Shown piece after piece: positions 5,753 through 60,680 of a DNA stretch of 64,000 nt. Position numbers and translations under genes: made by a program. Each line of letters begins with the position of its first letter. Position 1 is the stretch's first letter. The notes below the pieces were generated by a model that was given only the letters and a program-made list of their open reading frames with translations, was not told where the DNA came from and did not search any database. Source of the stretch: Chloroflexota bacterium (GTDB lineage Bacteria > Chloroflexota > Anaerolineae > DUEN01); assembly GCA_013152435.1 (NCBI GenBank), contig JAADGJ010000119.1:1-64000 (forward strand). The letters are read 5' to 3'.

Positions 5753-6007
5753 GAGCGCGTCTGAGAAATGCCACGGCATTCGCTATGGGGAGGCCCGGAG
5801 GGGTTCCGCTCCCCAGCAAAAGCCCTTCTCCCGCCTTCGACCTGCGCGGCCTCGGCCCGGATCCTTCGGGAGGGGCCGAGAAAGGCAGGTACAGGCCGGA
5901 AAAGTGGGATCTCCGTGGAGGGGAGACCCCCTCCACACCTCCCCCTGTGGAGCCGGTAGCTGAGGGAGATCCCCAGACACCTTACCGGCAAATTCCCAAA
6001 CACGCTC
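5753..6007 (+). repeat. Dispersed MITE-like element, family A, copy 2 (perfect TAA duplication)
   Basis: A 255 bp family A element between GAGCGCGTCTGAGAAAT and, at the right, AATTCCCAAACACGCTC. It is flanked on both sides by TAA (5750-5752 and 6008-6010), the clearest target duplication of the full-length copies. It separates the convergent chrA and ccmD genes. The internal palindromes GGAGGGGAGACCCCCTCC and GGCCTCGGCCC/GGGGCCGAG could act as a transcription barrier, but no T-run is present. Confidence 0.88.
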
Positions 6008-6011
6008 TAAG

Positions 6012-14621: not shown

Positions 14622-14788
14622 TCATCCCCTCTCCATAGAATCCCCGCTTTTCCAGCCTGCACCCGCCTTTCCCGGCCCTTTCGGGGGATCTGAGCCGAGG
14701 CCCGGCAGGTCGAAGGCGAAGGAATGGCAACTCCCAGCCCCTCCGAGTCTCCCCACAACAGGAGCAACGGCATCTCTCAGACACACTC
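14622..14788 (-). repeat. Family A element fragment forming the mazG leader
   Basis: About 167 bp of a family A element in minus orientation. The outer end CTCTCAGACACACTC and the paired blocks GCCGAGGCCCGGCAGGTCGA and TGCACCCGCCTTTCCCGGCC are intact. The other end is lost where the sequence runs into the mazG ribosome-binding site. A second terminal-repeat sequence, CAGACACGCGTC, follows directly after the outer end (14791-14802), as if two element ends were stacked. Confidence 0.7.
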
Positions 14789-20196: not shown

Positions 20197-20452
20197 GAGT
20201 GTATCTGAAAAATGTCGTTGCTTCTGCTGTGGGGAGGCTCGGAGGAACGGAGCCACCCCGGAAAAAGCCCTTCTTTTGCCTTCGACCTGCCTGGCCTCGG
20301 CCTGAGTCCTTCGGGAAGGGCCGAGAAAGGCAGGTATAGGCCGGAAAAGTGGGATTTCCGTGGAGGGGAGGGTCCCTCCACACCTCCCCCTGTGGAGCTG
20401 GTCGTTGAGGGAGACCCGCACGCACATTGCCGATAAATTTTCAGACACATTC
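20197..20452 (+). repeat. Dispersed MITE-like element, family A, copy 3
   Basis: A 256 bp family A element from GAGTGTATCTGAAAAAT to AAATTTTCAGACACATTC. The flanking trinucleotides are TTA and ATA, both of TNA form but not identical. Internal blocks match the other copies closely, including GGCCTCGGCC, GGGCCGAGAAAGGCAGG and CTCCACACCTCCCCCTGTGG. Confidence 0.85.
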
Positions 20453-33384: not shown

Positions 33385-33640
33385 TGCGTGTTTGAGAAAC
33401 CCCGCTGCCCCCGCTACGGGGAGGCCCAGAGGGGCAGGGCTCCTCCGAAGGAACCTATGCTTCCGCCTCTGACCCGCCCGCTCTCGATCCAGAGCCTTGT
33501 GAAAAGGGCCGAGAAAGGCGGGTACAGGCCAGGAAGATGGGATCTCCTGCGGAGGGGAATCCCCTCCACACCCTCCCCTGTGGAACATACCGTTGGGGGA
33601 CGGCCTCAGACGCCTGGCCGGTGAATTTTCAGACACGCGC
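33384..33640 (+). repeat. Dispersed MITE-like element, family A, copy 4 (within the ccm operon)
   Basis: A 257 bp family A element from GTGCGTGTTTGAGAAA to TTTTCAGACACGCGC, more diverged internally than the others but with the same blocks (GGCCCAGAGGGGCAGGG, GGGCCGAGAAAGGCGGG). The left flank is CTA and the right is TGA. It lies between ccmG and ccmF, genes normally read as one transcript. Confidence 0.82.
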
Positions 33641-33729
33641 TGAATAACGTGAGGATACGTGCTCCCCGATCAAGCGTGCAGGTGTCTTGAGCACGAAAGA
33701 ACTCCAAGAGTTGGACAAAGGAACCGACT

Positions 33730-35799: not shown

Positions 35800-36330
35800 A
35801 TGATCATCGTGATAGCCATTCTCATGGCCGCCATCTCCGTCGCCATCGTCGCCTGGCCTATCGTGCAACAGAGGCGATCGAACCATGTGGATACCGAGGG
35901 ATCCGACGCCCTCGCCGAGCTGATGGAGCGCCGGGACAGCCTGCTGGCCGCGATCAAGGATCTGGAGTTCGATTACGCGATGGGCAAGATGGCGGAAGAG
36001 GATTTTCAAGTCCTGAATGCCCAATTACGGTCGGAGGCGATCGAAGTCCTCAAGCAGATCGATCAGCGCCAGGGCGTCAAGCCTGGCAAAGCGGCAGCCC
36101 GCCTGGAGCGCGAGATCTCACGCCGACGACGCAAGGCCGCGGCCCCGGCCGAGGACCTCGAAGCCCAAATAGAGGCTGAGATCGCAGCGCTCCGCCGACG
36201 ATCCGCCCGGCGGGCGCCCGCCTCCGATCAGGCAGCCGGATTCTGTACCCGGTGCGGGGCGCCGCTCGAGGAGGGGGACCGTTTCTGCGGGCGCTGTGGC
36301 ACGCCCGTCGCCTCTCCGGACGCGGCATGA
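35800..36330 (+). CDS. CcmI-like membrane protein with C-terminal zinc ribbon
   Basis: A 176-residue protein with an N-terminal membrane helix (residues 1-20) and a CcmI/CycH-type helical hairpin: ELMERRDSLLAAIKDLEFDYAMGKMAEEDF, then a long basic coiled coil. It ends in a zinc ribbon with two CxxC pairs, FCTRCGAPLEEGD and FCGRCGTPV. CcmI normally chaperones apocytochrome c with periplasmic TPR repeats; these are absent and a zinc ribbon replaces them. GGGGGAGG precedes the ATG. It is the last gene of the cyclase-ccmHGF unit, and a terminator palindrome follows. The cytochrome fusion at 8530 has a similar helical tail. Confidence 0.75.
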   Translation: MIIVIAILMAAISVAIVAWPIVQQRRSNHVDTEGSDALAELMERRDSLLAAIKDLEFDYAMGKMAEEDFQVLNAQLRSEAIEVLKQIDQRQGVKPGKAAARLEREISRRRRKAAAPAEDLEAQIEAEIAALRRRSARRAPASDQAAGFCTRCGAPLEEGDRFCGRCGTPVASPDAA

Positions 36331-36354
36331 AGCTTCCGTCTGAACGACAAACGA

Positions 36355-36378
36355 AGCCCCGACCCATGGGTCGGGGCT
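36355..36378. terminator. Palindromic terminator shared by the ccm operon and the candidate ncRNA
   Basis: AGCCCCGACCC-AT-GGGTCGGGGCT, perfectly symmetric. On the plus strand CCTCATGTTTC follows; on the minus strand TCGTTTGTC follows. It can end both the ccmHGFI transcript and a minus-strand RNA. Confidence 0.75.
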
Positions 36379-36399
36379 CCTCATGTTTCACGCTCAGTC

Positions 36400-36569
36400 A
36401 CGGAAGGGTCCCAAGCAACCTACTGAGCCGCCCTCGGTCGGGTTGGCCGAACCCAGCCCCCTCAGGGCCGACCGACATCGGTCGAGGATGCTGCCCCGAC
36501 CGTGTCCCCAAAATGGACCCTCACCACGACCAGCGCTCTGCCGTTCAATTGCTCGGGACTCGCTTCCGT
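36400..36569 (-). ncRNA. Candidate structured non-coding RNA (about 170-215 nt)
   Basis: A minus-strand RNA is predicted from four coinciding signs. A TTGACA-type promoter (36574-36602) would start it at about 36569. Its first 19 bases, ACGGAAGCGAGTCCCGAGC, pair with GCTTGGGACCCTTCCGT at its 3' side, so the ends close in a long helix. The interior folds into several hairpins: GGTCGGGG-CAGCAT-CCTCGACC, GGGTT-CGGCC-AACCC and GTCC-ATTTTGG-GGAC. The terminator palindrome at 36355 follows. There is no reading frame worth the name. A closed-end RNA of this size recalls 6S RNA, but the branched interior is unlike it. Family unknown. Confidence 0.5.
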
Positions 36570-36573
36570 ATAT

Positions 36574-36602
36574 AATTTAGCACGTCGGATGGACGGTGTC
36601 AA
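36574..36602 (-). promoter_or_regulatory. Promoter of the candidate ncRNA
   Basis: TTGACA, a 17-base spacer and TAAATT on the minus strand. No protein gene lies downstream on this strand before the terminator. Confidence 0.55.
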
Positions 36603-36695: not shown

Positions 36696-37469
36696 TCAAA
36701 CGAGAGGCCAGGGGTGACTACGCCCGGGGCCCGGCCCGGGGAAACGCGGAACCCGCAACACCCGCTCCACACGCAGGACGAACGCGCGGATCTCCTCCTC
36801 TGAGAGAAGGTGTCCCAACGCCTCTCGCAACTCGCCGGACTCCATCAGATGCTGACGCAACTCCCTCAGATCGTCCAGATATCGACGGGGAACCGGCTTG
36901 CCCTGAAAATCCCAGATCACCGTGCGCAGCTTGCGCTGGACGTGAAAGGTCAGCCCATGGTCCACCGCCCAGATCCGCCCATCGCGCCCCAGCAGGCAGT
37001 GCCCTCCTTTGCGATCCGCGTTGTTGGTGATGAGATCGAAGAGGGCGATGGGAAGCAGATCCCGCAGGCGCTCCTCACGAAAGGTGAAATAGTGAACCTC
37101 TGGGTCGTGATCGATGTAAAGCTGGAGCGATCCCAACCCATGCGGCCCCTCACGCAACACCGTGGGAGGAATCCACGGCCATCCCAACGCCTGGCTGACC
37201 AGATACGACGCCATCTCCCGCAGGCACAACGTCCCCGCCGGGAAATCCCATAACGGCGTCTCACCCCGCTGGGGCTTGTAGACGGCCAGCGCAGCCAGCG
37301 TATCATCCCGGACCGTAACCAGGAAGGTATAGTTGGAGCTCCACGGGATCAGCCCTTGCGGCTCGATCTCGCCCTCGCTCAGCAGCTTCAGGATCCGACC
37401 GACATCAACCGCTACCGCCTGTTCCAGGTCAACCTGCGATCTCTCCTCAGCTGACTCGTCCCGCGCCAT
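36696..37469 (-). CDS. SCO1664 family protein (PI3/PI4-kinase-like fold)
   Basis: A 257-residue protein of the SCO1664 family, which has a kinase-like fold and unknown substrate. It has the family motifs EGEIEPQGLIPWSSNYTFLV, AVYKPQRGETPLWDFPAGTL, PPTVLREGPHGLGSLQLYID and the catalytic-loop-like ALFDLITNNADRKGGHCLLG, followed by IWAVDHGLTFH (DxG-like metal site). These suggest ATP binding with Lys in VYKP and acidic residues in NNADR and VDHG. The ATG at 37469 is chosen over a longer frame from 37541. It has its own promoter at 37573. Its substrate, protein or small molecule, is not known. Confidence 0.82.
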   Translation of the reverse strand: MARDESAEERSQVDLEQAVAVDVGRILKLLSEGEIEPQGLIPWSSNYTFLVTVRDDTLAALAVYKPQRGETPLWDFPAGTLCLREMASYLVSQALGWPWIPPTVLREGPHGLGSLQLYIDHDPEVHYFTFREERLRDLLPIALFDLITNNADRKGGHCLLGRDGRIWAVDHGLTFHVQRKLRTVIWDFQGKPVPRRYLDDLRELRQHLMESGELREALGHLLSEEEIRAFVLRVERVLRVPRFPGPGPGRSHPWPLV

Positions 37470-37572
37470 CTCGCACCCTGCACCCGATCTCTTGATACCT
37501 GCCCTTCCGCTCATACCACAAAGAGCCGTCGACCGACTCAATAAGCGAGCCCGCCACCCCGGCCCGCCGCCT

Positions 37573-37636: not shown

Positions 37637-37894
37637 GAATGTGCCTGAAAAATGCCGTTGCTTCTGCTATGGGGAGGCCCAGAGGGGCTCCGCCCCTCCG
37701 GAAAAAGCCCTTCTTTTGCCTTCGACCTGCCTGGCCTCGGCCTGGGTCCTGCGGGAAGGGCCGAGAAAGGCAGATGCAGGCCGAAAAAGTGGGGTTTTCC
37801 GTGGAGGGGAGGCCCCCTCCACACCTCCCCCTGTGGAGCTAGTCGTTGAGGGAGATCCCTCGGACATCTTGCCGGTAAATTTTCAGACACGCTC
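37637..37894 (+). repeat. Dispersed MITE-like element, family A, copy 5 (perfect TGA duplication)
   Basis: A 258 bp family A element from GAATGTGCCTGAAAAAT to AAATTTTCAGACACGCTC, flanked on both sides by TGA (37634-37636 and 37895-37897). It lies between the divergent SCO1664 and MFS genes. It is the copy closest by eye to the one at 1204. Confidence 0.88.
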
Positions 37895-38135
37895 TGAGCC
37901 CCCTCGAGCTCCCCGCCGCATTTCCATACGAAACAGATATCCCCCCCCTCAATAGAGGTAGCGCGTTCTTTTCATGGAGGCCATCCCGCCAGATGCAAAC
38001 TTCCTTGCGCGTTCTGGCGATGCAGCCCCTTCCATGCTATCATAGCCCGGCCGAAGGGCTCCGCCTCTACGATCAAGCGGCGAGAGCCTCTCACGACACC
38101 GGGGGAATCCGCCGGACAGAGCATAGAGGGAAACG

Positions 38136-39326
38136 GTGACGCATACAGAGAAACGGAAGCTGGTGGGACTGACGTACGCCGCAATGGCGCAGCACGGCAT
38201 CGCCCTGGTGCTGATGGGCCCCGTACTGCCATCGATCATGGAGACGTTCAAGGTTCATGAGTCCGCGGCCGGGCTCATGCTGGGCCTCGGCTCTTTGGGA
38301 TTCGCTTTGGGCCCGATGGTCGCCGGGACGATCACCGATCGAGCCGGGGTCAAGCGGGCGCTGCTCCTGGGGCTGTGGATCGAGGCGCTCATGCTCGGCC
38401 TGTTGGGATTCGCCCCGGCCTTCCGCTGGATCATCATCACCAACATGCTGTTGCACTTCTTCGCCGCCTTCGTGGAGACGTCCGTGAACGTGATGCCGAC
38501 GCTCATCGAGCGCCGCAACGCCGGCTCCCTGATGAACATCGTGCACCTCTTCTTCAGCGTGGGAGCACTGGTCTCCCCGATCCTGGCCGGGATGATCCTG
38601 AAGACCACGGGAAGCTGGAGGCTGGTCTTCTGGTTCGTCGCCCTGCCCACGATCCTGCTGGCTCTGATCGCCTGGCGTACCCCCTTCCCGGACCAGCGCG
38701 CGGGGGCGGCCAAGACGAAGCGCCCTGTGCCCCTGGGGACCCTTCTGCGCGATCGCTCGATCTTGCTGGGAGCGCTGGCTCTCTTCCTCTACGTCGGCGC
38801 CGAGGTGGGCGTCTCCAACTGGATCGTCCTCTACCTGAAGCGCCGGCTGGGATTCGCTACCCTGGCCTCGACCTCCGGGCTATCCGTGCTGTGGGTGGGG
38901 ATCATGGTGGGCCGGTATCTGAACTCCCGGCTGGCCCGAACCCGCTCCAGCCGAGAGCTGGTGCTGTGGGCGGGCGTAGGCGGGCTGTTCACCGGCCTCG
39001 GGCTGCTCACGGCCCGCACCCCGCTGATGGCGTACGTCTGGCTGGGGGCGATCGGCTTGTGCATGTCCGGCGTGTTCCCCAACATCATGGCCGAACTGAA
39101 CGGACGAGATCCGGCGCGAGCGGGCGCCGTGACGGGCATCCTGACGGTGGGGGCAGCCGCCGGCGCCATGGTCTCACAGCCGCTGCTGGGCGTGGTCGCC
39201 GAGCGAATGGGGCTGCCAGTGGCCATGGCGCTGCCAGGGATCATGATGGGTCTTTTGACCGTCGCGTACCTGGGGGCGGTCGACATCAAGCCCGGGGAAC
39301 GGGAGATGGAGGCGGCCAATCCGTGA
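38136..39326 (+). CDS. MFS transporter
   Basis: A 396-residue transporter with twelve predicted membrane helices in two halves. It has the loop 2-3 motif GTITDRAGVKRALLLG near residue 70 and the equivalent GRYLNSRLARTRSSRELVL in the second half. Helix 5 has FFSVGALVSPILAG. It resembles sugar or drug proton symporters of the FucP/YfkF type; the substrate is unclear. The start is GTG at 38136 with AGAGGG upstream. The loop between halves (about 190-205) is short and basic. No neighbouring gene gives a hint of cargo. Confidence 0.85.
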   Translation: MTHTEKRKLVGLTYAAMAQHGIALVLMGPVLPSIMETFKVHESAAGLMLGLGSLGFALGPMVAGTITDRAGVKRALLLGLWIEALMLGLLGFAPAFRWIIITNMLLHFFAAFVETSVNVMPTLIERRNAGSLMNIVHLFFSVGALVSPILAGMILKTTGSWRLVFWFVALPTILLALIAWRTPFPDQRAGAAKTKRPVPLGTLLRDRSILLGALALFLYVGAEVGVSNWIVLYLKRRLGFATLASTSGLSVLWVGIMVGRYLNSRLARTRSSRELVLWAGVGGLFTGLGLLTARTPLMAYVWLGAIGLCMSGVFPNIMAELNGRDPARAGAVTGILTVGAAAGAMVSQPLLGVVAERMGLPVAMALPGIMMGLLTVAYLGAVDIKPGEREMEAANP

Positions 39327-39395: not shown

Positions 39396-39471
39396 TGGTA
39401 CCCTCGGCAGGATTTGAACCTGCGGCCTCAGCGTCCGCAGCGCTGCGCTCTATCCCCTGAGCTACGAGGGC
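39396..39471 (-). tRNA. tRNA-Arg (anticodon GCG)
   Basis: A 76 nt cloverleaf with encoded CCA. The acceptor stem is GCCCTCG/CGAGGGT (one G-U pair) and the D arm is GCTC...GAGC. The anticodon stem is CAGCG/CGCTG with loop CTGCGGA, giving anticodon GCG. The T arm is GCAGG-TTCAAAT-CCTGC. Reading CGY arginine codons with G34 instead of an inosine-modified ACG is unusual for a bacterium. Confidence 0.88.
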
Positions 39472-39510
39472 ACATGCACGCCAGACGGCGATTCACCGTC
39501 CAGCATCAGG

Positions 39511-39601
39511 CGGGGAGGAAGGGATTCGAACCCTTGGTGGAGGTTTTAGCCCCCACAACCGCTTAGCAGGCGGCCCCAATCGTCCACTCTGGCACCTCCC
39601 C
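39511..39601 (-). tRNA. tRNA-Ser (anticodon GCU)
   Basis: A 91 nt class II tRNA with a long variable arm. The acceptor stem is GGGGAGG/CCTCCCC with discriminator G, the anticodon loop is CTGCTAA, and the T arm is AAGGG-TTCGAAT-CCCTT. It reads AGC/AGU. CCA is not encoded. Confidence 0.93.
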
Positions 39602-39626
39602 AGACTGACGCTATAAGGTTGTTCAT

Positions 39627-39718
<92 letters not shown>

Positions 39719-39886: not shown

Positions 39887-41167
39887 TCACCGGATCACCT
39901 CCACGCCGCCCATGTAAGGCCGCAACACCTCCGGCACGATCACGGAGCCATCCTTCTGCTGATAGTTCTCCAGGATGGCGATCATCACTCGCGGCAGCGC
40001 CAGCCCCGACCCGTTCAACGTGTGCACGAACTCCGGCCTGGCACCCGGCTCCGGCCGATATCGGATGTTCGCCCGCCGCGCCTGGAAATCCATGAAGTTC
40101 GAGCAGGAGCTGACCTCCAGCCACTCCCGGCAGCCCGGCGCCCACATCTCCACATCGTACTTGATGGCCGCCGTGAAGCTCAGGTCACCCGTGCACATCT
40201 GCACCACGCGATGCGGGATGCCCAAGCGGCGGCACACCTCCTCTGCGTTGTCCACCAGCTTCTCCAGCTCCTCGTCCGAGGTGTGCGGCTCCACGAACTT
40301 CACCATCTCCACCTTGTCGAACTGATGCCCCCGCTTGATGCCGCGCACATCCCGCCCGGCCGACATCTTCTCACGCCGCCAACAGGGCGTGTATGCCACG
40401 TGATAGATGGGCAGGCTGCCGGGCGGCAGGATCTCGTCCCGATAGAGGTTCGTGACCGGGACCTCCGCCGTGGGGACCCACCAGAGATCGTCCTCCACGT
40501 CGTGATAGAGATTGTCCTCGAACTTGGGGAGCTGGCCCGTCCCCACCAGGCACTCCCGCTTGACCACGAAGGGCGGATAGACCTCCGTGTAGCCATGCTC
40601 GCTGACGTGCAGGTCGATCATCCAGGTGATCAGAGCGCGCTGCAGGCGGGCGCCCAGCCCCCTGAGCACGTAAAACCGGCTGCCGGAGATCTTCACGCCC
40701 CGCTCAAAGTCGATGATCCCCAGGGCCGGCCCCAGGTCCCAGTGAGGGAGGGGCTCAAAGTCGAAGTCCCTCGGCTCCCCCTCCGTGCGGACCACCACGT
40801 TGTCGCGCTCGTCCCTGCCCACGGGCACCTTGGGATGTGGCAGGTTGGGGATCTGCAACATGGCATCGTGCAGCTCAGCCTCCACCTGTCGCAGGCGCTG
40901 ATCCAACTCATTGATCCGCTGGCCGATCTCGCTCATCTCCGCCTTGATGGCCTCGGCCTCCTCCCGCTTTCCCTCTCGCATCAACTGCCCAATCCGCTTG
41001 CTGCCGGCGTTACGACGCGCGCGCAGCTCCTCCACCTCCGCCAGCAGGGACCGACGCTCCGCATCCAGCTCCAACACTCGATCGATCGGCGCGTCCTCCG
41101 CGCCCAGCTTGCGCATGGCATCTCGAACCATATCCGTCTGTTCCCGGATGATGCGGATGTCCAACAT
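39887..41167 (-). CDS. serS: Seryl-tRNA synthetase
   Basis: SerS charges tRNA-Ser with serine. The 426-residue class II synthetase starts [20 protein letters not shown], with the long antiparallel coiled-coil arm (residues 28-100) that grips the variable arm of tRNA-Ser. Motif 2 region residues include [15 protein letters not shown] and [27 protein letters not shown]. Motif 3 is [17 protein letters not shown] near residue 385. The ATG at 41167 has GAGGAGG upstream; a frame reaching 41209 would start within the T-box terminator region. The upstream T-box and the two tRNA-Ser genes immediately downstream tie it to serine charging. Confidence 0.96.
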
Positions 41168-41194
41168 ATCGAGACCTCCTCTGCCCTCCGAATG

Positions 41195-41475
41195 AAAAGC
41201 GCCCCTCATCCGACCAGGACGAGAGGCGCTCTCGTGGTGCCACCTGGATTCGCCCCGCGCTCACGCCACGGGACCTCCGCGGGTCTATCCGACCCCATCC
41301 GCTAACGGGGATGAACCGGCTCACCATACTGAGCACGCCGCCGTTCCGGTGAGCGACTCGGGAGGGGATTCGAGACGCCTGTGCTACCGCCTTGCACCAC
41401 CCGGCGGCTCTCTGAAAGCACTACGACGCCCTACTCGTCTCCGTCGTCGTCGTTCTATACTATCCCTTTCTTACG
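41195..41475 (-). promoter_or_regulatory. T-box riboswitch upstream of serS
   Basis: The minus strand carries a typical T-box leader. Stem I elements include GAGTAGG, CAGAGAGC and GGGTGGTGCAAGGCGGT. The T-box sequence TGGCACCACG lies at 41233-41242 in the antiterminator, and the competing terminator AGCGCCTCTCGTCC/GGATGAGGGGCGCT with TTTT lies at 41195-41230. Uncharged tRNA-Ser would pair its 3' end with the T-box and let transcription continue into serS. The specifier may be UCC in CTCGAATCCCC; this reading is tentative. Confidence 0.92.
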
Positions 41476-46029: not shown

Positions 46030-46075
46030 ATGACCGCCTGTCTCGCATCGCCCACTCCGGGAGGGGATCCCCCTA

Positions 46076-46332
46076 GAGCGCGTCTGAAAAACCACCGGTA
46101 AGGCGCCTGGAGGGCTCCCTCAACGACCAGCTCCACAGGGGGAGGTGTGAAGGAGGCCTCCCCTCCACGGAAACCCCACTTTTCCGGCCAGCACCTGCCT
46201 AGCCTCGACCCATTCCGAAGGACCCAGGCCGAGGCCAGGCAGGTCGAAGGCAGAAGAAGAGCTTTTTCCGGAGAGGCAAATCCCCTCCGGGCCTCCCCAT
46301 AGCAGAAGCAACGGCGTCTCTCAGACCCGCTC
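46076..46332 (-). repeat. Dispersed MITE-like element, family A, copy 6 (inverted)
   Basis: A 257 bp family A element in minus orientation, from GAGCGCGTCTGAAAAAC at the left to CAGACCCGCTC at the right. The flanks are CTA and TCA. The internal blocks GGAGGCCTCCCCTCC and GGCCGAGGCCAGGCAGGTCGA are present. It separates divergent genes. Confidence 0.86.
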
Positions 46333-60401: not shown

Positions 60402-60484
60402 GCGCCCATAGGATAACCGAACCTCACCGAATGCGCAAGGGGAAACGCCCGTTGTAGTAAGCAGAGGAGCTCCCTTGCATCGAA

Positions 60485-60680
60485 ATGCCAATCGCTTCTG
60501 CTATGGGGAGGCCCGGAGGCGCTTCGCCCTCCCGGAAAAAGCCCTTCTCCCGCCTTCGACCTGCCTGGCCTCGGCCCAGATCCCCGCGGAAAGGGCCGAG
60601 AAAGGCAGGTGCAGGCCGGAAAAGGAGGATTTCCGTGGAGGGGATCTCCCCTCCACACCTCCCCTTGTGGAGCTGGTAAA
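60485..60680 (+). repeat. Family A element, core only (both ends lost)
   Basis: About 195 bp that match family A from ATGCCAATCGCTTCTGC to CCCCTTGTGGAGCTGGTA, including GGGCCGAGAAAGGCAGGTGC and GTGGAGGGGATCTCCCCTCC. The left terminal repeat is missing. The right side passes into TCAGTGCCTTAGTGGTTCC, which is the right core of the family B element at 2564, so the sequence is a composite. Confidence 0.72.

What the first reader, a model, noticed from the sequence alone, without database searches (positions are those of the whole stretch)
36355..36602. Candidate structured RNA with its own promoter and terminator
Minus-strand TTGACA promoter, predicted 5' end exactly at the start of a long closing helix (ACGGAAG...CTTCCGT), several internal hairpins and a terminator palindrome, with no gene on that strand. 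The size is near that of 6S RNA but the branched interior fits no family I know.
Basis: partly seen in the sequence, partly recalled or inferred. Interest (0 to 1): 0.65.

Follow-up and report, generated by a model that had tools for sequence, protein, structure and literature searches.

The report
Orphan intergenic structured small RNA gene
Between two ordinary genes of an uncultured bacterium lies what looks like a stand-alone gene for a small, strongly folded RNA with its own start and stop signals, but no relative of it was found in several hundred related genomes, so its function is unknown and it is probably one of the many fast-changing small RNAs of bacteria.

Summary
On the minus strand there is a TTGACA-N17-TAAATT promoter with an extended -10. 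It is followed 5-6 bases later by a ~21-bp closing helix, a branched interior and a perfect-palindrome terminator, all in a 365-bp gap with no gene of its own. Promoters this good number 13 distinct sites in the window against 0.5 expected by shuffling, and every other one listed precedes an ORF or the tRNA cluster, so a real transcript is likely. Folding is well below shuffles (z about -4 for the core, -5.4 to -5.8 with the terminator) and stronger on the minus strand. It is not 6S RNA: the genome has one canonical 6S elsewhere (82 bits), and no Rfam family fits the candidate. No homologue was found by BLAST in 396 same-class genomes or with a single-sequence covariance model in 249. The same-genus relative keeps the flanking gene pair but has only a ~110-bp gap with a plain terminator and no RNA. 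Covariation therefore cannot be tested, and function is unproven. Best reading: a lineage-restricted intergenic sRNA gene, a new member of a known kind. Main rival: a transcribed but non-functional promoter/terminator pair.

The parts
36574..36602 (-). sigma-70-type promoter TTGACA-17-TAAATT with extended -10 (TGC)
   Evidence: every other listed site of >=10/12 in the window precedes an ORF or tRNA cluster
36400..36571 (-). structured RNA core; predicted +1 about 36567-36569
   Evidence: single-sequence fold only, no covariation available
36547..36569 (-). 5' strand of closing helix P1 (ACGGAAGcGaGTCCCGAGCAATT)
   Evidence: pair probabilities mostly 0.9-1.0
36400..36420 (-). 3' strand of closing helix P1 (GGTTGCTTGGGACCCTTCCGT)
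36474..36506 (-). internal hairpin GACACGGTCGGGG-loop-CCTCGACCGATGTC
   Evidence: pair probabilities 0.9-1.0
36453..36471 (-). second internal hairpin, less certain
   Evidence: pair probabilities about 0.6-0.8
36507..36522 (-). longest exposed stretch, GAGGGUCCAUUUUGGG; possible seed (inference)
   Evidence: unpaired, or paired with p at most 0.34
36345..36380 (-). intrinsic terminator, perfect 24-nt palindrome core 36355-36378 plus moderately U-rich tail; probably serves the convergent ccm genes (+) too
36333..36406 (.). imperfect extension of the terminator palindrome; its outer CTTCCGT/ACGGAAG arms compete with P1
   Evidence: 75% over 80 columns; outer arms, p 0.003
36696..37541 (-). upstream same-strand neighbour, SCO1664 family protein (TIGR03843); not part of the RNA
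   Evidence: 279 bits against cut-off 172
35800..36330 (+). convergent neighbour, zinc-ribbon protein at the end of the CcmH/thioredoxin-like/CcmF cluster; not part of the RNA

Best explanation
A stand-alone, lineage-restricted small RNA gene. RNA polymerase starts at about 36568 on the minus strand and makes a transcript of about 225 nt that stops at the palindromic terminator near 36345. The 5' end is locked into a ~21-bp closing helix around a branched interior. The closing helix would shield the 5' end and make the RNA stable. The RNA would then act in trans, most simply as a base-pairing regulator through an exposed internal stretch (GAGGGUCCAUUUUGGG, 36522-36507). Shown by computation: promoter-like site, terminator-like site, unusual folding energy, absence of a coding gene, absence of detected homologues. 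Inferred: transcription, stability, trans action, seed. The target is unknown.
For: The promoter is far above chance and of the class that precedes genes elsewhere in the window. The genome's own 6S gene shows a similar upstream arrangement, TTGCCA-17-TATTTT with TG (read by eye from the sequence). Folding is below all 200 shuffles in the tool runs and stronger on the minus strand, with 13 G-U pairs that would be lost on the plus strand. The fold survives inclusion of upstream sequence, 75 of 78 pairs kept. No Pfam match in overlapping ORFs. [quoted passage not shown]
Against: No homologue in the same genus, family or class, so there is no covariation and no sign of purifying selection. The terminator tail is only moderately U-rich. 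Plus-strand folding is also better than most shuffles, so part of the signal is palindromic DNA. No expression data.
Confidence: 0.5

Rival explanations
1. A real or weak transcript without function: a strong promoter that arose by drift behind SCO1664, running into the terminator needed anyway between convergent genes, with a fold that is G+C-rich but not selected.
For: Absent from the same-genus genome, which keeps the gene pair with a ~110-bp gap and a plain terminator; no homologue anywhere searched; about 1% of random window segments have a closing helix of >=18 pairs.
Against: The conjunction of a top-class promoter, helix start at the predicted +1, low folding energy and terminator is hard to get by drift; no other listed site of this strength in the window lacks a downstream ORF or tRNA.
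Confidence: 0.3
2. The 3' untranslated region of the SCO1664 mRNA, possibly processed into a 3'-UTR-derived sRNA, rather than an independent gene.
For: SCO1664 lies on the same strand and ends about 94 nt before the -35; no terminator-like site was listed between its stop and the candidate.
Against: A strong promoter stands directly before the structure. Its presence does not exclude that both transcripts exist.
Confidence: 0.1
3. Remnant of a small mobile element or palindromic repeat inserted between the genes.
For: Gap is about 255 bp longer than in the same-genus relative; an 8-bp direct repeat GCTTCCGT flanks 222 bp (36332-36339 and 36562-36569); the genome carries another abundant ~255-bp repeat.
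Against: Single copy in the genome; no similarity to the abundant repeat; about one 8-bp repeat is expected by chance in a region this size (own estimate); no terminal inverted repeats seen; no homology of the flanking intergenic DNA with the relative that would prove an empty site (p 0.54).
Confidence: 0.08
4. A second 6S RNA (6S-2-like).
For: Size, closing helix at the 5' end, own promoter.
Against: RF00013 does not list the candidate even at E 10; one match per positive genome in the relatives searched, and in this genome it lies on contig C70; the interior is branched with no obvious large central bubble.
Confidence: 0.02

Closest known systems
Classical intergenic bacterial sRNA gene (as described in PMC9438474)
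   Same: Own sigma-70-type promoter, intrinsic terminator, intergenic position, about 100-225 nt, strong secondary structure
   Different: No detected relatives, no expression evidence, no identified target; unusually compact folding with the 5' end closed in a helix
6S RNA (RF00013)
   Same: Size range, long closing helix at the 5' end, own promoter
   Different: No covariance-model match; canonical 6S present elsewhere in the genome; branched interior, no obvious central bubble
3'-UTR-derived sRNAs
   Same: Lies directly behind a same-strand gene and ends at a terminator that may be shared
   Different: Has its own strong promoter after the stop codon

Membership tests
Intergenic sRNA gene (generic) | Own promoter | tested here: met
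   TTGACA-17-TAAATT with TG; sites of this class 13 seen vs 0.5 expected; consensus evidence only
Intergenic sRNA gene (generic) | Intrinsic terminator | tested here: met
   12-bp stem, tail GTTTGTCGTT; U-tract moderate
Intergenic sRNA gene (generic) | No protein-coding gene in the transcript | tested here: met
   No Pfam match in the ORFs overlapping it; no ORF >=120 aa starts within 900 bases downstream of the promoter
Intergenic sRNA gene (generic) | Transcript detected | not testable with these tools
   Needs RNA-seq or Northern blot
Intergenic sRNA gene (generic) | Conservation or covariation in relatives (supporting, not strictly defining) | tested here: inconclusive
   No homologue in same genus, family or class sample, so helices could not be compared; the closest genome held is already distant (neighbour protein 83% identical)
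6S RNA (RF00013) | Covariance-model match | tested here: not met
   Not listed at E <= 10; the genome's 6S is at C70:22006-22182, 82 bits
6S RNA (RF00013) | Large central bubble in an unbranched rod | tested here: not met
   Predicted fold is branched, with two hairpins on the apical stem; prediction from one sequence
6S RNA (RF00013) | Binds RNA polymerase and templates pRNA | not testable with these tools
   Biochemistry needed
Any Rfam 15 family | Score above gathering threshold | tested here: not met
   Only the T-box and three tRNAs in the window reach it; best weak match is a terminator-like fit to rnk_pseudo, 25.2 bits against 55

The most novel reading that the evidence does not exclude
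The RNA founds a new structured-RNA class, with the 5' end sealed in a closing helix that competes with the terminator's outer arm for one CTTCCGT strand, so that folding could tune termination and stability; its relatives lie in genomes not yet sampled.
Probability: 0.07. Interest if true: 0.55.

Novelty: new member of a known kind. Interest (0 to 1): 0.3.

Why it matters
If transcribed, it would be a well-delimited sRNA gene in a bacterial group for which two literature searches here found little on small RNAs, and an example of an RNA gene gained or lost between species of one genus. Without relatives it tests no general question yet.

Tried and rejected
Rfam at gathering and at E 10: no family. 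6S: genome's 6S found elsewhere. DNA BLAST in 60 relatives and in 396 same-class genomes: only the self-match and short 23-35-nt alignments at E 0.002-0.01 per genome, a number close to chance for that many genomes. Single-sequence covariance model in 31 genomes at E 1 and 249 at E 0.01: self only, plus one 86-nt match at E 0.005 in G030 that looks like chance. Plasmids and phages and one 20-nt exact pattern in viral contigs: nothing. The genome-contig scan with the neighbouring SCO1664 protein returned two distant loci, not useful. Transposon hypothesis: single copy, no terminal repeats, empty site not demonstrable. Cis-regulatory leader: no plausible gene downstream on the minus strand, and the next plausible plus-strand gene rightwards starts at 38136. 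Protein gene or pseudogene: no Pfam match. Retron-type ncRNA was considered because of the terminal helix; no reverse transcriptase was recognised among the immediate neighbours examined, and no genome-wide search was made. Literature searches found nothing on sRNAs in this group.

Full report
What is there. The 365-bp gap between a plus-strand zinc-ribbon protein gene (35800-36330, last of a CcmH / thioredoxin-like / CcmF cluster) and a minus-strand SCO1664-family gene (ends 36696; TIGR03843) contains, on the minus strand, a TTGACA-17-TAAATT promoter with an extended -10, a 172-nt strongly folded stretch and a palindromic terminator. The genes converge, so the terminator, which is a perfect palindrome at its core, probably serves both strands.

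Is it more than chance? Promoter: with the same rule (at least 10 of 12 consensus bases, spacing 16-18), the window has 13 distinct start sites on both strands against a mean of 0.5 in dinucleotide shuffles, and 7 with TG against 0.025; one extra row in the list comes from a -35 variant not starting with TT. All the other listed sites have an ORF of at least 120 aa or the tRNA cluster within 900 bases downstream; only 36602 has none. So the site is probably a real promoter and its product is probably non-coding. Fold: z is -4.3, -3.2 and -4.1 for the core in three runs with different end points or shuffles, and -5.8 and -5.4 with the terminator. Among 744 tile-strands of the window 6 reach z < -4, and at least two of those tiles lie in copies of a dispersed repeat. 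The closing helix has 21 pairs; at least 18 such pairs are seen in about 1% of random segments. The minus strand folds 17-26 kcal/mol better than the plus strand; 13 of its 86 pairs are G-U, which favours RNA on that strand. The fold is stable to added upstream sequence.

What it is not. No Rfam family reaches its threshold here, and the weak matches at E up to 10 are fits to the terminator hairpin or chance. The genome has one 6S RNA on another contig at 82 bits; 10 of 11 genomes searched have exactly one 6S match. Overlapping ORFs have no Pfam match.

Relatives. BLAST with the whole unit finds only itself in its own genome, and nothing beyond short chance-level matches in the one same-genus and two same-family genomes held and in the 396 genomes of the class sample. 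A covariance model made from the single sequence and its predicted structure finds only itself in 31 genomes at E up to 1 (apart from one chance-like 86-nt match in G030) and in 249 genomes at E 0.01. That model has little power for diverged relatives. In the same-genus genome G001 the gene pair is kept (83% and 61% identical proteins), but the gap is about 110 bp and holds only a different terminator. The unit was therefore gained in this lineage or lost in that one. The flanking gap DNA shows no homology (p 0.54), so an insertion with an empty site cannot be shown.

How it most likely works (inference unless stated). Transcription starts at about 36568. The first 20 or so nucleotides pair with 36420-36400, closing a branched domain with two hairpins and one exposed 16-nt stretch (36522-36507), and polymerase stops at the terminator. 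An RNA with its 5' end in a helix and its 3' end in a terminator hairpin should be stable. A trans-acting sRNA is the simplest role; the target is unknown and could not be tested. A detail that may or may not matter: the strand CTTCCGT (36406-36400) can pair either with the 5' ACGGAAG or with a third ACGGAAG beyond the terminator (36339-36333), which extends the terminator hairpin (outer-arm similarity p 0.003). Since the 5' partner is made first, the closing helix should win.

Verdict. The layout fits the textbook definition of an intergenic sRNA gene (PMC9438474). Without expression data or relatives, function is unproven, and a non-functional transcript remains a serious rival.

Noticed in passing
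window 37640-37900; also 1212-1464, 5761-6011, 14639-14785, 20205-20448, 33393-33643, 46075-46324, 60483-60677: A dispersed G+C-rich repeat of about 255 bp: 8 copies at 72-100% identity in this window; at least 43 matches in the whole genome, mostly 86-94% identical, with only 40 of 331 candidates scored; one copy (83%) in the same-genus genome G001 and only a 36-bp match in G003. The query copy overlaps the strongest-folding tile of the window (37669, z -5.1). Looks like a recently amplified non-coding element.
   Followed up: partly
window 41212-41456 (-): T-box leader (RF00230, 101 bits) directly before a minus-strand ORF at 39887-41209 whose translation reads as seryl-tRNA synthetase, with two tRNA-Ser genes and one tRNA-Arg just downstream (39396-39718).
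   Followed up: no
window 36333-36406: The terminator between the convergent genes is the core of a ~75-nt imperfect palindrome whose outer arms (CTTCCGT/ACGGAAG) duplicate the closing-helix sequence of the RNA.
   Followed up: partly
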